Positions 98-17,276 of a stretch of 20,922 bases of DNA are shown here, one piece after another. The notes below the pieces were generated by a model. The model ran no database searches. It had not been told where the DNA came from and worked only from the letters and a program-made list of their open reading frames with translations. Positions within the stretch are counted from its first letter, which is position 1; the number at the start of each line of letters is the position of its first letter. Source of the DNA: a virus; IMG/VR virus record IMGVR_UViG_3300020401_001464, positions 1-20,922 of that record; one strand, written 5' to 3'. A program made the position numbers and the translations under genes.

Positions 98-325
98 TTA
101 ACCGCTTACGTAAGGTGACCCGTCCTTGAATTTAGAAAAAAAGTTTTTTTGATGATATATTCTACCTAGTAATTCTTGTATCTCTTGCATTTCAGCTTTT
201 AATTGAGGCGATGTTTCTCCTTGTGCTATTGCTATTCCTCTACGTCCTGCTTTTGCTCTTAATGCTATTTCAATTATTTCTATATCTCTTATACTAAGTT
301 CAAATTTAGTGTTAGGTTTTGGCAT
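98..325 (-). CDS. Small conserved phage protein of unknown function (75 aa)
   Basis: This is a short helical, charged protein that begins MPKPNTKFELSIRDIEIIE and ends in a stretch with KNFFSKFKDG. I recall similar proteins (MPKPNT start, LSxRDxEIIE motif, LLGxxxxQKN near the end) in T4-like marine phages, but know no function. No signal peptide, membrane segment or catalytic motif is seen. Its ATG overlaps the stop of the dehydrogenase gene upstream (TAATG), so it is likely translationally coupled to it and transcribed from the sigma70 promoter at 1697-1725. Confidence 0.8.
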   Translation of the reverse strand: MPKPNTKFELSIRDIEIIEIALRAKAGRRGIAIAQGETSPQLKAEMQEIQELLGRIYHQKNFFSKFKDGSPYVSG

Positions 326-1488
326 TATAATTTTTCCTTAATTTGTTCTACAATATCTTTTGCCGTATATGCACTTAATGTCCAACCAAGATGTCCGTGG
401 CCTGTGTTGTAAAATACTCTTTTTGCATTTTTACTTTGTCTTACTATTGGCATCATATTAGGTGTCATTGGACGCAGTCCTGCCCATGGTGTAATATTTT
501 CTGTATTGATTCCAGGAAATATTTTTTCACTCCATTCTATAAGTGGTTTAATTCTTTTTTGTATGATGTCTGTATTATAGCCGTTGAATTCTGCCGTGCC
601 AGCTACTCGTAATCTATCTTCACCTAGTCTAGCAGTCACAATTTTAGCTTCGTCATCAAGCATACTAGTCCATGGAGCAACTTCAGGTTTGTTTATTGTA
701 ATAGAATAACCTTTTACAGGATAAATGTCTAGTCTATCATTAATAGTTTTAGCTAATGTTCTTGAGCCTATGCCAGCACACACTACTATAGGACCTCGAA
801 AATGATTCAAGTCTTTTAGATGCTGTATAGTCCTTTGGTCATATTTTATTTTATATTTGTCTTTCAAAACCTTAGTTAGTTGTACACAGAATTTGTGTAT
901 ATCACCTGTAAAATCTGTTTGATTAAACATGCCGCCTAGTAATTTTGGAGGAGGCACTAGTGCCGGCTCTATTTCTCTACATTGTTCTGCCGACACTTCC
1001 CATCTATTAAGTCCTGCATTTTTATAAATTTCGTTTACTCTTCTTGCATTTTCAAATTCTTTTTCATTTGTATAGATATGTAAGATTCCCTTTTCAACCT
1101 TATCGAATTTTATATCTTCAAAAAATGCAATTTCTTTTAATAGTTTGTGAGCTTGCAAAGCCATAACACAAGTATCAAATGTGCAATCGTCACTATTGGG
1201 AATGGCAGTGATAAACTTTATCAACCAACTATACTTTTCTATATCAAATGAAGGATTTATTTTTAAAGGAGCATCAGCTTTAGTTAACCATTTGATGCCT
1301 TTGTGTATGCTACGCCAACTGTTCCAAACCTCTGCGTTACTTGCACTAAGTTGTCCGCCATTAGCATAAGAGGTCGCCATGGCAGGATACTTCCGTTCGT
1401 CGTATATTGTAACAGAGTATCCTGCTTTGGCCAAGTAATAGGCAGTTGTTATGCCGGTGATGCCGGCCCCCACTACTGCCGCTTGCAT
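325..1488 (-). CDS. dadA: FAD-dependent D-amino-acid dehydrogenase (DadA-like)
   Basis: A 387-residue flavoprotein of the DAO/DadA family, which oxidises D-amino acids to 2-oxo acids and passes the electrons onward. The N-terminus has the FAD-binding Rossmann fingerprint GAGITG (residues 7-12) followed by TAYYLAKAGYSVTIYDE. The DadA-like TSYANGGQLSASNA segment lies near residue 40. The C-terminal half carries GYSITI, WAGLRPMTPNMMPIV and NTGHGHLGWT (from residue 361), all hallmark DadA segments. The protein is shorter than E. coli DadA (about 430 residues) and lacks its C-terminal tail but looks intact. The start overlaps the stop of the 61-residue gene (TAATG) and its stop overlaps the next start, so the three genes form one operon. 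A glycine or other amine oxidase specificity is possible; the substrate cannot be read from sequence. It is an unusual cargo for a phage. Confidence 0.87.
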   Translation of the reverse strand: MQAAVVGAGITGITTAYYLAKAGYSVTIYDERKYPAMATSYANGGQLSASNAEVWNSWRSIHKGIKWLTKADAPLKINPSFDIEKYSWLIKFITAIPNSDDCTFDTCVMALQAHKLLKEIAFFEDIKFDKVEKGILHIYTNEKEFENARRVNEIYKNAGLNRWEVSAEQCREIEPALVPPPKLLGGMFNQTDFTGDIHKFCVQLTKVLKDKYKIKYDQRTIQHLKDLNHFRGPIVVCAGIGSRTLAKTINDRLDIYPVKGYSITINKPEVAPWTSMLDDEAKIVTARLGEDRLRVAGTAEFNGYNTDIIQKRIKPLIEWSEKIFPGINTENITPWAGLRPMTPNMMPIVRQSKNAKRVFYNTGHGHLGWTLSAYTAKDIVEQIKEKL

Positions 1489-9981: not shown

Positions 9982-11040
9982 TTACTTCTTGCTAGATAAA
10001 ATAGTGCCTAATCTACGTGAACGCATTACAGATTCTCTTCTAGCTCTACCTGCTTCGTCTTCACCGCCTACTGCTGGTGCCGCCGCGGCCATGCCGTCAT
10101 CTGCTTCTGCATCAATTGTAGGTTCCATATCACCTTCCAAATCATCCATAGGCGCATCCATAGGTGCATCTCCCATAGGTTCAGCCATGTCAGACTCACC
10201 TGTAAGTTGACCAACACCTTGTGTCAACGATACTCTTGTTTGTTCCATTGAAGCATATAACTGTTCTAAGGCAGGCTTCACAGTGTTTGTAAATGATTCA
10301 CTTGCTCCTGCTCCCATTTCATCACGTATTGCATCTGCAAGTTCTAGCATTGACTCTGATTGCATTTCAGCAGTGTCTTCCATCCAACCAGTTAATCTGT
10401 CAACCATGTCCTTTGCGGCCATTACAAGTTCTGCTTTATCTTCTTCGCCTTCTTTTATAAGAGATTTGAAATAATTTTCAATAATAGTTTTACCTTCGTC
10501 TATTGGTCCTTTTACAGAATTCCATACATCTTTGTTTTCTTCGCCATATTTTTTAATAAATTCTGCCATAGTCATTTTTTCTGCATCAGCCATCATCATT
10601 TTCTTGACGCCACCTTCTTTGATGTGCTTTCTCAACTGTGGAGGTACTTTACTCAAGTCCTTTTTCTTCTCTTTGCCGCCATCTTTTTCTTTAGCATCCT
10701 TTGCGGCCTTAGACATTGGTTCTTTTGTATTTTTGTCCTTATCTAAATCTAGGAAGTCTGGCTTTGCTTTTTCTTCAATATCAACATCAGAACGTTCCGC
10801 AATCGCAGCATTGAGAACATCAAGGAAGAGTTTGTTCTTAGCGTATGTTTCGTTTTGATGCAATCCACTATAACTTTCATTAGTTTCGATATCACTTAAT
10901 TTTGTTCTAATTTTATTTCGTGTATCCTGTAGTTGTTCTAATGTAAATTTGTCTACATCAATCTTCTTGCCAAATTGTTTGGCTAAAGTTTCATTTAAAT
11001 TCTTAGAATTTGCTGGTTTGTTAATTTCTCTAATGTTCAT
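9982..11040 (-). CDS. Probable virion structural protein (352 aa, coiled-coil and acidic low-complexity regions)
   Basis: Residues 1-90 are helical (KKIDVDKFTLEQLQDTRNKI, FLDVLNAAIAER). They are followed by a Lys/Glu-rich linker near 95-130 (AKEKDGGKEKKKDLSK), a helical region to about 270, and then an acidic Met/Asp/Pro/Ala-rich stretch near 285-325 (MGDAPMDAPMDDLEGDMEP). The end is basic (GRARRESVMRSRRLGTILSS). I recall similar proteins annotated as structural in T4-like cyanophages, but the precise role is unknown. Scaffold-like composition is an inference only. The ATG at 11040 follows an AGGAAG site and a late promoter at 11072-11079. Confidence 0.82.
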   Translation of the reverse strand: MNIREINKPANSKNLNETLAKQFGKKIDVDKFTLEQLQDTRNKIRTKLSDIETNESYSGLHQNETYAKNKLFLDVLNAAIAERSDVDIEEKAKPDFLDLDKDKNTKEPMSKAAKDAKEKDGGKEKKKDLSKVPPQLRKHIKEGGVKKMMMADAEKMTMAEFIKKYGEENKDVWNSVKGPIDEGKTIIENYFKSLIKEGEEDKAELVMAAKDMVDRLTGWMEDTAEMQSESMLELADAIRDEMGAGASESFTNTVKPALEQLYASMEQTRVSLTQGVGQLTGESDMAEPMGDAPMDAPMDDLEGDMEPTIDAEADDGMAAAAPAVGGEDEAGRARRESVMRSRRLGTILSSKK

Positions 11041-11696: not shown

Positions 11697-11947
11697 TTCA
11701 TTGATGCCAATTGAGCCATAAGTGCTTTCTTTTGGTCGTCTAGCGATTTTATTTGAGCTTGTATAGCACTACGCTGTTGAGACATAGTTGCTTTTCTTTC
11801 AGCTTCAGCTTTTGCTTGCGTTGCAGGGTCTACACCTTTGTTAGTTTCAGGTGCCTGATTTTGTTGTCCTCCTCCTGTTGGTGGAGTTGGTTTTTGTGGG
11901 GTAGGAGCAGGTGTCTGCATTTGCATATCTACTTCATGAATTTTCAT
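11693..11947 (-). CDS. Pro/Gln-rich small protein with C-terminal coiled coil (84 aa)
   Basis: The first half is low-complexity, rich in Pro, Gln, Thr and Gly (TPAPTPQKPTPPTGGGQQNQ). The second half is a helix with heptad character (QQRSAIQAQIKSLDDQKKAL). This layout suits a tether or assembly chaperone, but no family is recognised. Its start overlaps the stop of the 95-residue basic protein and its stop overlaps the 66-residue gene (both ATGA). Expression therefore probably follows the basic-protein pair. Confidence 0.78.
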   Translation of the reverse strand: MKIHEVDMQMQTPAPTPQKPTPPTGGGQQNQAPETNKGVDPATQAKAEAERKATMSQQRSAIQAQIKSLDDQKKALMAQLASMK

Positions 11948-12231
11948 ATCTTTCTACTCCTTTTACGAGGCTTGTTAAGCGAAGCTACTCTTCTTGCACC
12001 TGCACTAGAACGTTTTGTAATAGCTGTTTTAGCTTTTGCAATAGATGCTTTCGAACCCCGTCTTGTTTGTGACAGTGTGTTTTTTGCTTTAATATTTATC
12101 GGTGCATTACATGATGCTGGACTAGCTCGAACTTGTCCTTTACGCGGGCCACTCGTGCAACGAAATTTAAAAGATGGTGACTTACCTGGTTTCCTTTGGT
12201 ACGCTCTACTTGTTATTTCAAACACTATCAT
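11944..12231 (-). CDS. Small highly basic protein, second copy of a tandem pair (95 aa)
   Basis: It shares with the preceding gene product the pattern K-[FY]-R-C-x-S-G-x-R-K, then A-x-P-A-x-C-x-A-P and a long Arg/Lys-rich tail; here it reads KFRCTSGPRKG and ASPASCNAPINIKAK. The two Cys residues about 15 apart plus the basic tail suggest a nucleic-acid-binding protein, possibly packaged in the virion, but this is inference. No Cys/His quartet for a standard zinc finger is present, so a zinc site would need dimers. The start overlaps the stop of the first copy (ATGA), which supports a tandem duplication with translational coupling. Confidence 0.82.
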   Translation of the reverse strand: MIVFEITSRAYQRKPGKSPSFKFRCTSGPRKGQVRASPASCNAPINIKAKNTLSQTRRGSKASIAKAKTAITKRSSAGARRVASLNKPRKRSRKI

Positions 12232-12503
12232 CTGTTTAAGCCTTTTGCTAATCTAATACTTGCTGGATTTGTACGTTTTGTACGTTTTGCTTTCCTAGCC
12301 ATTCTGTTAGAAAGCCTAGCTCTTGTACGCTTCATTACAGCTCGTTTTTTTACATCCATTGGCGCAAAGCATTGAGCTGGTGTAGCAACAATCCTATTTT
12401 TCCGATTGCCACTCATACAGCGATACTTTCTTACAAGTGTTTTGCCTTTCCGGCCCCATACTTGCTTTTCATCAATAGGTTGTACGAACTCGCTTACTAA
12501 CAT
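12228..12503 (-). CDS. Small highly basic protein, first copy of a tandem pair (91 aa)
   Basis: It is homologous to the next gene product: KYRCMSGNRKNRI and ATPAQCFAPMDVKK align with the KFRC/ASPASC segments there. The C-terminal 45 residues are very rich in Arg and Lys (MKRTRARLSNRMARKAKRTK). A role in binding DNA or RNA is plausible but unproven. No Shine-Dalgarno precedes the ATG at 12503 and an in-frame stop lies just upstream, so no other start is available. The late-promoter motif AATAAATA ends five bases before the ATG, which predicts a leaderless mRNA. Confidence 0.83.
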   Translation of the reverse strand: MLVSEFVQPIDEKQVWGRKGKTLVRKYRCMSGNRKNRIVATPAQCFAPMDVKKRAVMKRTRARLSNRMARKAKRTKRTNPASIRLAKGLNR

Positions 12504-15002: not shown

Positions 15003-16184
15003 TTATCTTTGTACTGATCTGTTTGCTTTTGTAAAATATGCTCTTGGCACAAGTTTTATGTCACCTTCTGGATGAGCTAGGACATAGCCTTCTCCTCCAT
15101 CACCATGTGCATCTGGTGTAACCGGACCATGTGGTCCAATATCTGCTTTAACAGTTGAATCATGAGAATCAAATTGTTTAATAATTTTGTCCTTGACAAT
15201 TAAAATTCCTGTCACAATATCCCACATAGCATTAAATGCTTGTTGGTTTTGAGAAATATGATCAATTATCCTTGTTTGTTTCACTCCACTAATTTTACTT
15301 GTTTTCATCCACTCTAAGAAGTCTTGCCCTAATTTAGTTAAGCCCGTATCAACTTTACTGTTCATGTAGGTGTAAAAAATATCTGGAAGGTCTTTCATCT
15401 TTAATTGCATTAATGTAGGCTTATCGAGCATTTTATCAATAGATGCACCAAATTTGCTTACACTTGCTTTGAGAGCATTTATATCTTCGTCTTCAATCTC
15501 AGCTGGTTGTTGTACTGTTACACTAGGAAAGAGCAATACCTCTGTTCCAATAAATTGCATATTATTAGGCACAGGTCCTTCTTGTCCATTTTCGTCCATT
15601 AATCTGTGCACCACTATACCTGTTTTGCTTTGAGCAATTTGCTTTCCAAGATCACTGTTTACATCAACTCTGTACGTAACTATGTTAGGAGTAAAAACAA
15701 ATTTATTATCAATTACTTCTGGAGTATTAAAATAAAGTAAATCGCCTTTTAGATATCCTGAAAAGTCTTTAGGTACAGCTTTCTCGTATTCATCAAATAT
15801 ATCTTTCATGTTTGAGGCAAGCCTAGCGTATCCTTCCGCTTTTTTCGGATCTGGGTTTCTGGCTCCGGGGCGGGCCATAAGCATTTTTTGTAGAGCTTCC
15901 GCAGATTTTGCTCTTCCGTCGTATCCTTTTGCTGTGAATCCTGATTTGTCTGTGAGGATGAATTCTCCATTTTCATTGCGACCAAAAATGATTGCGGGAG
16001 ATCCGTCCCATTTAACTGTGACATTTTCTTGCCCTCCTTGCTCCATACTTTTAAGTGCTTCTAGAGTACGTATTGCGCCTTTACTTCCTTGAAAGAAAAT
16101 AAGATCTTCTGCATGTTGTATACGTGCATCTGCTTCGTACAAATGCTCAACATTCTCTACAATTTTAAAATCACTATATCTCAT
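15003..16184 (-). CDS. Putative ligase-type nucleotidyltransferase (KxDG motif, 393 aa)
   Basis: I do not recognise a named function, but the sequence carries signatures of the covalent nucleotidyltransferase fold (DNA/RNA ligases, capping enzymes). Motif I appears as VKWDGSPAIIFG, with K58-W-D60-G61 as the candidate AMP-accepting lysine. LKGDLLYF (145-152) resembles motif III, EGYVLAHPEG (365-374) motif IV, and IKLVPRAYF (376-384) motif V. The gap between the motif III- and IV-like segments is longer than in compact ligases, and GIVVHRL (189-195) is an alternative motif IV. The start overlaps the stop of the upstream Pol-beta-like gene by ATGA, indicating a coupled pair. A role in RNA or DNA end repair is inference; kinase-like or degenerate forms cannot be excluded. 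Confidence 0.6.
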   Translation of the reverse strand: MRYSDFKIVENVEHLYEADARIQHAEDLIFFQGSKGAIRTLEALKSMEQGGQENVTVKWDGSPAIIFGRNENGEFILTDKSGFTAKGYDGRAKSAEALQKMLMARPGARNPDPKKAEGYARLASNMKDIFDEYEKAVPKDFSGYLKGDLLYFNTPEVIDNKFVFTPNIVTYRVDVNSDLGKQIAQSKTGIVVHRLMDENGQEGPVPNNMQFIGTEVLLFPSVTVQQPAEIEDEDINALKASVSKFGASIDKMLDKPTLMQLKMKDLPDIFYTYMNSKVDTGLTKLGQDFLEWMKTSKISGVKQTRIIDHISQNQQAFNAMWDIVTGILIVKDKIIKQFDSHDSTVKADIGPHGPVTPDAHGDGGEGYVLAHPEGDIKLVPRAYFTKANRSVQR

Positions 16185-17026
16185 GAATACATCTTTACAC
16201 TATTAAGCAAAAGTCCACTTAATTCTTTAATGCGTCCTAGATGCTTATCTTCTAAGCTCTCAAAAGGTAATCCTTTGCCTTGCTTTTCCATTGCTTCAAG
16301 CCACGGTGCAATAAGTTCTTGGAAGTTTGGATCTCCTTTAATAGCGGCTAACATGCTTTCTACTGTATGTGTGTCAGGCTCTTTTGCATTTGGACCTAAC
16401 AATATCTTTGCTATTTCATCCCAATCATTTGCTATAACTTCATCACCTTTGTTAGGATCTACAACGCCTTTTGTAGGACTAAATTTATATCCTCTACCTC
16501 TTGCTAAACTTGCTAATAATACAGCTCTGTCTGCACCAGTATAATTTTCTGTGCCTCCTCTTTTTGCACCTCTTTGCAAATTAGGATTATCTGTAAGCAT
16601 AAAATCTGTTTGACAGAAACCGTTTTTTACTTCACCTCTAATAGGGGTTCTAAAATGTACTTGTAAACCTGCATTAGCTACCCAACCTGCTGTAAAGGTT
16701 CTGCCTTTATTCATAATTTCAAGATCGGGAATGCCTACCTTTTGACACCACGCAGTCAATTTTGCTATAATTTGTTCTTTAGTTAATACATTTGTATCAA
16801 CATTAAGATCTATATCACCTGAAGAATTTTCTTCAAATGTTCCGTCTTCTTTATACTTTTTACCAGTAGTGCCAAGCATGTCTTCGTCAATAAAGTTAAA
16901 TCCGAAAGTAGCATTCATCCATTCTATTGTAGGTTTAATATCAGGAGTAGCAATCCTTTGGGTAAGAGGTATTACTTCTTCTCCTTCTACTTTCTTAAAA
17001 ACATTACCGCCTTCATTTAGTATCAT
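16181..17026 (-). CDS. Putative Pol-beta-superfamily nucleotidyltransferase (281 aa)
   Basis: The likely catalytic core is LGTTGKK (51-57) followed by SSGDIDLNVD, whose D71-x-D73 pair matches the G-[GS]...DxD signature of the Pol-beta nucleotidyltransferase superfamily. A third carboxylate could be D141 in FCQTDFMLTD. The spacing from LGTTG to DID is longer than usual but allowable with an inserted loop. Other segments (ADRAVLLASLARGRGYKFSP, then TKGVVDPNKGDEV) may bind substrate. It could add nucleotides to RNA or modify a protein or small molecule; the sequence does not say which. The gene overlaps the 87-residue gene by 14 bases and the KxDG gene by 4 (ATGA). It has only a weak ribosome binding site of its own, so it is probably coupled to its neighbour. 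Confidence 0.6.
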   Translation of the reverse strand: MILNEGGNVFKKVEGEEVIPLTQRIATPDIKPTIEWMNATFGFNFIDEDMLGTTGKKYKEDGTFEENSSGDIDLNVDTNVLTKEQIIAKLTAWCQKVGIPDLEIMNKGRTFTAGWVANAGLQVHFRTPIRGEVKNGFCQTDFMLTDNPNLQRGAKRGGTENYTGADRAVLLASLARGRGYKFSPTKGVVDPNKGDEVIANDWDEIAKILLGPNAKEPDTHTVESMLAAIKGDPNFQELIAPWLEAMEKQGKGLPFESLEDKHLGRIKELSGLLLNSVKMYS

Positions 17027-17276
17027 TATTTTTACTCTCGATAACTTTTTTCATGCCACGTTTGAATTTACGCGGATCACCACTCTTAATAGCATTTATA
17101 AACCTACGTTCAAGCTCGCCTGCTGTATTTTCGTCATAAGTGCTACTGATCTTATTGATAAGGTTTATACTGCTTTCAATAAGATTACTTGCTGTGGTCT
17201 CAATTAAACGGTCATTACCGTAATTACGGCCTAATTCGTTTAATTCTTCCAGTATTGATCTAGTTTTCTTTTTCAT
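17013..17276 (-). CDS. Small charged helical phage protein (87 aa)
   Basis: Residues run MKKKTRSILEELNELGRNYG, with amphipathic helices (ETTASNLIESSINLINKIS) and a basic end (DPRKFKRGMKKVIESK). It looks like a small helical-bundle or adaptor protein; similar ones are found in T4-like marine phages. It opens the operon containing the nucleotidyltransferase pair. A late promoter lies at 17294-17301 and a GAGG site precedes the ATG. Confidence 0.8.
   Translation of the reverse strand: MKKKTRSILEELNELGRNYGNDRLIETTASNLIESSINLINKISSTYDENTAGELERRFINAIKSGDPRKFKRGMKKVIESKNNDTK

What the first reader, a model, noticed from the sequence alone, without database searches (positions are those of the whole stretch)
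15003..17026. Coupled Pol-beta-like nucleotidyltransferase and KxDG ligase-like protein: candidate undescribed nucleic-acid repair or modification module
Seen: the 281-aa product has LGTTG...GDIDLNVD plus a later QTDFML, and the 393-aa product has VKWDGSPAI, KGDLLYF, EGYVLAHPEG and IKLVPRAYF. The genes overlap by ATGA. Known: DxD plus a third Asp marks the Pol-beta nucleotidyltransferase superfamily, and KxDG/EGxV/hKhh are motifs I, IV and V of covalent nucleotidyltransferases. Inference: a two-enzyme system that adds nucleotides to an end and seals it, for example countering host RNA-cleaving defences, or modifying a protein or metabolite. It sits in a late operon, so packaging into virions is conceivable.
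Basis: partly seen in the sequence, partly recalled or inferred. Interest (0 to 1): 0.75.

Follow-up and report, generated by a model that had tools for sequence, protein, structure and literature searches.

The report
Phage polymerase-beta and ligase-like enzyme pair
A marine phage carries two overlapping genes for enzymes that look like a nucleotide adder and a strand joiner; they are fused into one protein in some relatives, the joiner belongs to a gene family of unknown function found in almost every T4-like cyanophage, and together they are probably a nucleic-acid end-repair kit.

Summary
P2 (281 aa) and P1 (393 aa) overlap by ATGA, and both motif sets are invariant in relatives: K58, D60, G61, K80, G147, D148, E365, G366 and K377 in 92/92 P1 homologues; D71, D73 and D141 in 44/44 P2 homologues. 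P1 is Pfam DUF6267, unknown function. P2 matches no Pfam or PHROG family. The AlphaFold model of P2 (pLDDT 90) hits only family-X DNA polymerases among the top PDB matches listed; the P1 model (pLDDT 93) hits tRNA and DNA ligases first, but weakly. Of 167 P2 loci, 160 also carry P1; 13 are natural fusions, 2 lack it. Distant P2 homologues in jumbo phages PA5oct, Atu_ph07 and Phosso also sit beside KxDG ligase-like genes, and in PA5oct the P2 homologue is annotated as a virion protein seen by mass spectrometry. Without P2, P1 is near-universal in T4-like cyanophages, which lack a recognisable DNA ligase, and usually neighbours a HIGH-type nucleotidyltransferase. Best reading: a nucleic-acid end-healing and sealing module, analogous to but not a member of the known RlaP-RNA ligase pairs. 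RNA versus DNA substrate is unresolved.

The parts
16181..17026 (-). P2, 281-aa Pol-beta-fold nucleotidyltransferase; AlphaFold model resembles family-X DNA polymerase palm plus thumb; no Pfam or PHROG family
   Evidence: ORF; no significant family; AF2 pLDDT 89.9; Foldseek to Pol lambda, Pol beta and TthPolX, best E 3.1e-4, prob 1.00; 44 relatives
15003..16184 (-). P1, 393-aa KxDG covalent-nucleotidyltransferase-like protein, Pfam DUF6267, with a helical insertion (about residues 232-340) between motifs IIIa and IV
   Evidence: ORF; DUF6267 E 1.1e-35; AF2 pLDDT 92.9; 92 relatives
16181..16184 (-). ATGA overlap of P2 stop and P1 start codons
   Evidence: sequence
16808..16816 (-). P2 D71-x-D73, metal-binding pair (GDIDL)
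   Evidence: invariant in 44/44
16604..16606 (-). P2 D141, third carboxylate (QTDFML)
   Evidence: invariant in 44/44
16002..16013 (-). P1 motif I K58-W-D-G61, predicted nucleotide-accepting lysine
   Evidence: invariant in 92/92
15741..15746 (-). P1 motif III G147-D148
   Evidence: invariant in 92/92; Asp where classical ligases have Glu
15081..15092 (-). P1 motif IV E365-G-Y-V368
   Evidence: E365, G366, V368 invariant in 92/92
15042..15056 (-). P1 motif V K377-L-V-P-R381
   Evidence: K377 and R381 invariant in 92/92
17013..17276 (-). 87-aa gene overlapping the 5' end of P2, PHROG virion structural protein; a relative lies near this position in 162 of 167 P2 loci
   Evidence: phrog_11854 E 6.4e-15; conservation

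Best explanation
P2 and P1 form a two-enzyme nucleic-acid end-repair module. P2, a Pol-beta-fold nucleotidyltransferase shaped like the catalytic core of family-X polymerases, would use D71, D73 and D141 with two metal ions to add one or a few nucleotides to a damaged 3' end or gap. P1, a divergent covalent nucleotidyltransferase, would take AMP onto K58, pass it to a 5'-phosphate end and seal the strand. Translational coupling and natural fusion keep the two steps together. Shown by computation: both genes, invariance of the catalytic residues, coupling and fusion, the Pol-beta fold of P2. Inferred: nucleotide addition, adenylylation, sealing and the substrate. I lean to RNA (cleaved tRNA or other host-damaged RNA) over DNA, about 60:40, because P1 ends about 12 residues after motif V and so has no room for the OB-fold domain of DNA ligases and capping enzymes, shares PNxIxY-type and motif-Ia patterns with T4 Rnl1 by eye, and coexists with a separate ATP DNA ligase in several of these phages. 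The virion finding in PA5oct suggests that at least P2 may be delivered with the genome in some phages.
For: Invariant catalytic residues. P2 fold: the top PDB matches listed are all Pol lambda, Pol beta or TthPolX. P1 fold: top PDB matches are fungal tRNA ligase Trl1 and DNA ligase III; in the viral library, RNA ligases appear after DUF6267 relatives. Coupling: 160 of 167 P2 loci also carry P1, 136 with a gap of at most 20 bases and 13 fused. Independent recurrence: the jumbo-phage P2 homologues (HMM E 2e-13 to 5e-33) sit beside KxDG proteins in PA5oct, Atu_ph07 and Phosso. The Atu_ph07 and Phosso neighbours match Pfam RNA_ligase at E 0.002 and 0.085; a PA5oct protein of the same length as its KxDG protein is recovered by the P1 model (E 1.4e-4). 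Separate ATP DNA ligases coexist with P1 (or, in PA5oct, its counterpart) in G005, G007, G008, PA5oct and DLP_6. tRNA genes lie within 1.5 kb upstream of P2 in one clade, 57 seen against about 12 expected from density. Published precedent for Pol-beta plus RNA ligase repair pairs: RlaP (PMC7824862).
Against: No profile-level homology of P1 to T4 Rnl1, Rnl2 or gp30 or of P2 to Pol beta beyond the DxD motif. Foldseek E for P1 versus ligases is only 0.16 with low TM-scores. P1 motif III has Asp, not Glu. The tRNA proximity comes from one clade and a strand-switch region, so it is not independent evidence; the window has no tRNA. No polynucleotide kinase was recognised in the searched marine contigs except one AAA_33 hit in G006, but the contigs are fragments. 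The cyanophage partner is a HIGH-type nucleotidyltransferase, which more often acts on small molecules.
Confidence: 0.55

Rival explanations
1. DNA gap or break repair: P2 is a minimal family-X-like DNA polymerase and P1 a divergent DNA ligase, together filling and sealing gaps in phage DNA, possibly carried in the virion. In T4-like cyanophages P1 would be the missing gp30-type ligase.
For: The best P2 fold matches are DNA polymerases of family X. The PA5oct P2 homologue is annotated as a virion protein seen by ESI-MS/MS. In cyanophages P1 lies in the replication cluster gp43-uvsX-gp41-mazG ... gp61. P1 is found in 370 Synechococcus and 61 'Cyanophage' records against 376 and 61 for gp41. No recognisable DNA ligase was found in the searched cyanophage genomes, and a review reports that no gp30 homologue is found in cyanomyoviruses (PMC2984593).
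Against: No OB-fold or motif VI in P1. P1 (or, in PA5oct, its counterpart) coexists with ATP DNA ligases in G005, G007, G008, PA5oct and DLP_6. P2 lacks an 8-kDa lyase or HhH N-terminal domain. Host ligase can replace gp30 in T4 (PMC2984593).
Confidence: 0.25
2. The pair modifies a protein or small molecule, for example NMP transfer to a virion or host protein or nucleotide activation for a surface sugar, and is not a polynucleotide repair system.
For: Pol-beta-fold enzymes include protein- and antibiotic-modifying enzymes (established knowledge). The cyanophage partner is a CTP_transf_like domain, downstream in 57 of 84 P2-less loci, once fused. The window genes lie among structural, Prs and UDP-glucose dehydrogenase genes. 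T4 Rnl1 itself also helps attach tail fibres (annotation).
Against: P2 resembles polymerases, not antibiotic or protein NTases, among the PDB matches listed. RNA_ligase-like neighbours recur in unrelated jumbo phages.
Confidence: 0.15
3. P1 has lost ligase chemistry and serves as a nucleotide-binding or scaffolding subunit; only P2 is an enzyme.
For: Motif III is Asp rather than Glu; C-terminal domain missing; weak fold match.
Against: K58, K80, D148, E365 and K377 are all invariant in 92 sequences as divergent as about 21% identity, which a dead enzyme would not need.
Confidence: 0.05

Closest known systems
RlaP (RNA-ligase-associated Pol-beta NTase, PF10127) with Rnl1/Rnl2 RNA ligases
   Same: A Pol-beta-superfamily NTase working next to a KxDG-type ligase in phages; proposed to restore lost nucleotides before sealing (PMC7824862).
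   Different: RlaP is not among the Pfam families that P2 members match (the 18 families hit are all listed), and RlaP was not found in the searched marine P2 contigs. P2 and P1 are fused or ATGA-coupled. Atu_ph07 and Lak-B6 carry RlaP matches elsewhere in the genome besides their P2 homologue.
Family-X DNA polymerases (Pol beta, Pol lambda, bacterial PolX)
   Same: Palm-thumb architecture and G-S/T ... GD-x-D ... D motifs; best structural matches.
   Different: No lyase or HhH N-terminal domain, no significant sequence-profile match, conserved N-terminal GGxxF-type motif of its own.
T4 RNA ligase 1 (gp63) and other covalent nucleotidyltransferases
   Same: KxDG, motif-Ia-like lysine K80, PNxIxY-like block after motif III, EGYV and hKhh motifs.
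   Different: Asp in motif III, helical insertion of about 110 residues, no C-terminal domain, no significant profile match.
Pfam DUF6267 / phrog_455, unknown function
   Same: P1 is a member (E 1.1e-35; 92/92 relatives).
   Different: Known only as unknown function; most named members are in cyanophages without P2.

Membership tests
DUF6267 (PF19782) | Profile score above the curated cut-off | tested here: met
   P1 124.1 bits against cut-off 27; all 92 relatives match
Covalent nucleotidyltransferase superfamily (ligases and capping enzymes) | Motif I KxDG and motifs III, IV, V in order | tested here: met
   K58, D60, G61, G147, D148, E365, G366, K377 invariant in 92/92; motif III carries Asp instead of Glu
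Covalent nucleotidyltransferase superfamily (ligases and capping enzymes) | Nucleotidyltransferase fold | tested here: inconclusive
   Top Foldseek hits are tRNA ligase Trl1 and DNA ligase III, but E 0.16-0.2 and TM below 0.2
Covalent nucleotidyltransferase superfamily (ligases and capping enzymes) | Covalent lysine-NMP intermediate | not testable with these tools
   Needs a biochemical assay
RNA ligase Rnl1 (PF09511) / Rnl2 (PF09414) | Profile match | tested here: not met
   No hit for P1; 1 of 92 members hits PF09511 at E 0.018; hhalign with T4-type Rnl1 and Rnl2 not significant
ATP DNA ligase / capping enzyme | C-terminal OB-fold domain with motif VI | tested here: not met
   P1 ends 12 residues after motif V (residues 377-381 of 393); the model shows one terminal helix there
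Family-X DNA polymerase | Pol-beta fold with palm and thumb | tested here: met
   Foldseek prob 1.00, E 3.1e-4, about 215 aligned columns, TMq about 0.4
Family-X DNA polymerase | Pfam palm or thumb profile | tested here: not met
   PF14791 no match in the window; PF14792 in 1 of 44 members at E 0.072
Family-X DNA polymerase | N-terminal lyase or HhH domain | tested here: not met
   Only about 50 residues precede the palm in the model
RlaP (PF10127) | Profile match | tested here: not met
   RlaP not among the families matched by any of 44 P2 members; RlaP not found in the searched marine contigs
RlaP (PF10127) | Genomic association with a KxDG-type ligase | tested here: met
   160 of 167 loci plus three jumbo phages

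The most novel reading that the evidence does not exclude
DUF6267 is the overlooked ligase of T4-like phages: in cyanophages it supplies the strand-joining activity that gp30 supplies in T4, and it works with exchangeable nucleotidyltransferase partners (a new Pol-beta, family-X-like enzyme in marine and jumbo phages, a HIGH-type enzyme in cyanophages), with the Pol-beta partner packaged in some virions to repair the genome or host RNA on entry.
Probability: 0.2. Interest if true: 0.8.

Novelty: new variant of a known kind. Interest (0 to 1): 0.6.

Why it matters
P1 gives a testable catalytic assignment to DUF6267, present in nearly all sequenced T4-like cyanophages, which lack any recognisable DNA ligase (a gap noted in PMC2984593). 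P2 is a virus-borne Pol-beta-fold family with no Pfam or PHROG entry, found in marine phages and jumbo phages. Fusion with, or location next to, a ligase-like protein in several distant phage lineages makes a two-step heal-and-seal system directly testable in vitro.

Tried and rejected
Profile-profile alignment of P1 with T4 Rnl1, Rnl2 and gp30: only motif IV-V aligns, not significant. Profile alignment of P2 with human Pol beta palm-thumb: only the DxD block, score 21.2-21.8 against 21.2 for the best of 40 shuffles (the last 112 residues of that sequence were confirmed against PDB, the preceding palm segment was from memory). Sequence search of PDB with the P2 profile found nothing, and with the P1 profile only chance-level hits. 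P2 in bacterial and archaeal genomes: none found. P2 in eight genomes or contigs carrying cyanophage-type P1: none, though without a positive control in that search. Homology of the 87-aa upstream gene with the PA5oct 81-aa virion gene: not supported. Lak phage: no ligase-like gene seen within 4 kb of P2, read with TAG=Q as well. Protein-family libraries flagged Fib-H_N and Mononeg_mRNAcap below cut-off for P2 and P1; rejected as chance. The PA5oct proteome paper (PMC7318152) is not held, so the MS evidence rests on the GenBank note only.

Full report
WHAT IS THERE. On the minus strand P2 (16181-17026, 281 aa) is followed by P1 (15003-16184, 393 aa); the stop of P2 and the start of P1 share ATGA. 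The record is a 20,922-base virus fragment. Neighbours include an 87-aa gene just upstream that matches a PHROG virion structural family, a lipase, ribose-phosphate pyrophosphokinase and UDP-glucose dehydrogenase upstream, and further small conserved genes downstream, one further down (9982-11040) matching a PHROG virion structural family. No tRNA lies in the window.

P1. Pfam assigns P1 to DUF6267, unknown function (E 1.1e-35), and PHROGs to phrog_455, unknown. No paper in the library uses the name DUF6267. Across 92 relatives down to about 21% identity, 23 columns are invariant, and K58, W59, D60, G61 (motif I), K80, G147, D148 (motif III position), E365, G366, V368 (motif IV), K377 and R381 (motif V) are among them. 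The AlphaFold model has mean pLDDT 92.9. Its best PDB matches are the adenylyltransferase domain of tRNA ligase Trl1 and DNA ligase III, but with E 0.16-0.2 and low TM-scores, so the fold call rests mainly on motifs and on the kind of protein that comes up first. In the viral structure library the first 12 hits are phage proteins, several named as cytidyltransferase-like, followed at lower significance by RNA ligases. P1 stops 12 residues after motif V, leaving no room for an OB-fold domain, and has a helical insertion between the early strands and motif IV. By eye, the block after motif III (FTPNIVTY) resembles FVAPTNRIVLAY of T4 Rnl1, and EGYVLAHPEGDIKL resembles EGYVAVMKDGSHFKI; profile comparison with Rnl1 is not significant.

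P2. No Pfam or PHROG family matches P2 or its relatives at a meaningful score. G52, G55, S69, G70, D71, D73, Q139 and D141 are invariant in 44/44. The model has mean pLDDT 89.9, and the 50 best PDB matches listed are Pol lambda, Pol beta or TthPolX, with prob 0.96-1.00 and about 215 aligned columns. The TM-score of about 0.4 and the lack of profile homology mean family-X-like shape, not proven membership.

COUPLING. Scans of IMG/VR gave 167 loci with P2; 160 also carry P1, 136 with a gap of at most 20 bases and 13 as one fused polypeptide (for example L055, L076/L080, L086, L094); 2 lack P1 (L067, L077) and 5 end at the contig edge. P2 is not found in GTDB genomes. P1 and P2 of the nearest relatives are mosaic: against contig 3300020446_000165, dS is 0.29 for P1 but 1.68 for P2, so the two can recombine separately near their junction.

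DISTANT RELATIVES. A divergent P2 query reaches jumbo phages. PA5oct EST35_0231, Atu_ph07 AUZ94877, Phosso XYS97604 and an unannotated Lak-B6 ORF match the P2 HMM (E 2e-13 to 5e-33). X is homologous to the protein directly upstream of DUF6267 in cyanophage S-PRM1 (phmmer E 5e-10), which in turn matches the protein upstream of DUF6267 in phage DLP_6, so the PA5oct locus bridges the two arrangements. In Atu_ph07 and Phosso the gene directly upstream of the P2 homologue, overlapping it, has KLDG, PNxxxY, EGxV and K-hydrophobic motifs and weak matches to Pfam RNA_ligase. Thus a ligase-like partner recurs in jumbo phages distant from the phage of the window.

CYANOPHAGES. DUF6267 relatives are found by tblastn in 370 Synechococcus phage records and 61 'Cyanophage' records; the gp41 helicase, as yardstick, is found in 376 and 61. 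There P1 has no P2 but a CTP_transf_like (HIGH-type) gene follows in 57 of 84 P2-less loci, once fused, and the place is the replication cluster. None of the searched cyanophage genomes has a recognisable ATP or NAD DNA ligase, nor, where tested, an RNA_ligase domain match, in line with a review that found no gp30 homologue in cyanomyoviruses and raised distant homologues as one possibility, though it thought absence more probable (PMC2984593). By contrast, marine P2-P1 contigs G005, G007 and G008, DLP_6, and PA5oct (with its KxDG counterpart) also carry an ATP DNA ligase, so P1 is not simply a replacement there.

MECHANISM. The economical reading is that P2 adds a nucleotide or nucleotides and P1 seals. 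RNA is mildly favoured: no OB fold, Rnl1-like blocks, RNA_ligase-like neighbours in jumbo phages, coexisting DNA ligases, and tRNA genes in one clade (57 within 1.5 kb upstream against about 12 expected; not independent, since they share ancestry and sit near a strand switch). DNA is favoured by the polymerase-like fold of P2, by the cyanophage gene position and by virion association. I give nucleic-acid end repair with the RNA lean 0.55, DNA repair proper 0.25, other chemistry 0.15, inactive P1 0.05.

NOVELTY. The pairing of a Pol-beta NTase with an RNA ligase in phages is known as RlaP (PMC7824862). P2 fails the RlaP profile test and P1 fails the Rnl1 and Rnl2 profile tests, so this is a new variant of that kind rather than a member.

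Noticed in passing
L003/L081 (contig 3300020446_000165) against window 15003-17026: P1 is 99% identical to the window (dS 0.29) but P2 in the same contig is only 94% identical (dS 1.68): a recombination breakpoint near the ATGA junction.
   Followed up: partly
L121, L136, L147, L164 and about 30 related loci, 0.4-0.6 kb upstream of P2: A variable tRNA cluster (Gly-tcc, Thr-tgt, Trp-cca, Cys-gca, Met-cat) sits just upstream of P2 in one clade.
   Followed up: partly
L254 2641-3660, L088 5081-6007, L258 3037-3954: Protein X next to KxDG proteins is conserved from cyanophage S-PRM1 and phage DLP_6 to jumbo phage PA5oct; some cyanophage genes at this position (P-TIM40, Melnitz) show PD-(D/E)XK-like motifs by eye.
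   Followed up: partly
L257 5621-6808: Lak-B6 has a second, canonical-looking nucleotidyltransferase (GS ... DIDLHV) about 1 kb from its P2 homologue.
   Followed up: no
window 11944-12231 and 12228-12503: Two adjacent small, very basic proteins with a similar pattern, probably paralogues; relatives lie near P2 in 88-89 loci.
   Followed up: no
window 325-1488: Phage-borne FAD-dependent oxidoreductase (DAO family, Pfam E 8e-56).
   Followed up: no
L067, L077: P2 without P1: the next gene is a different protein of about 130 aa.
   Followed up: no
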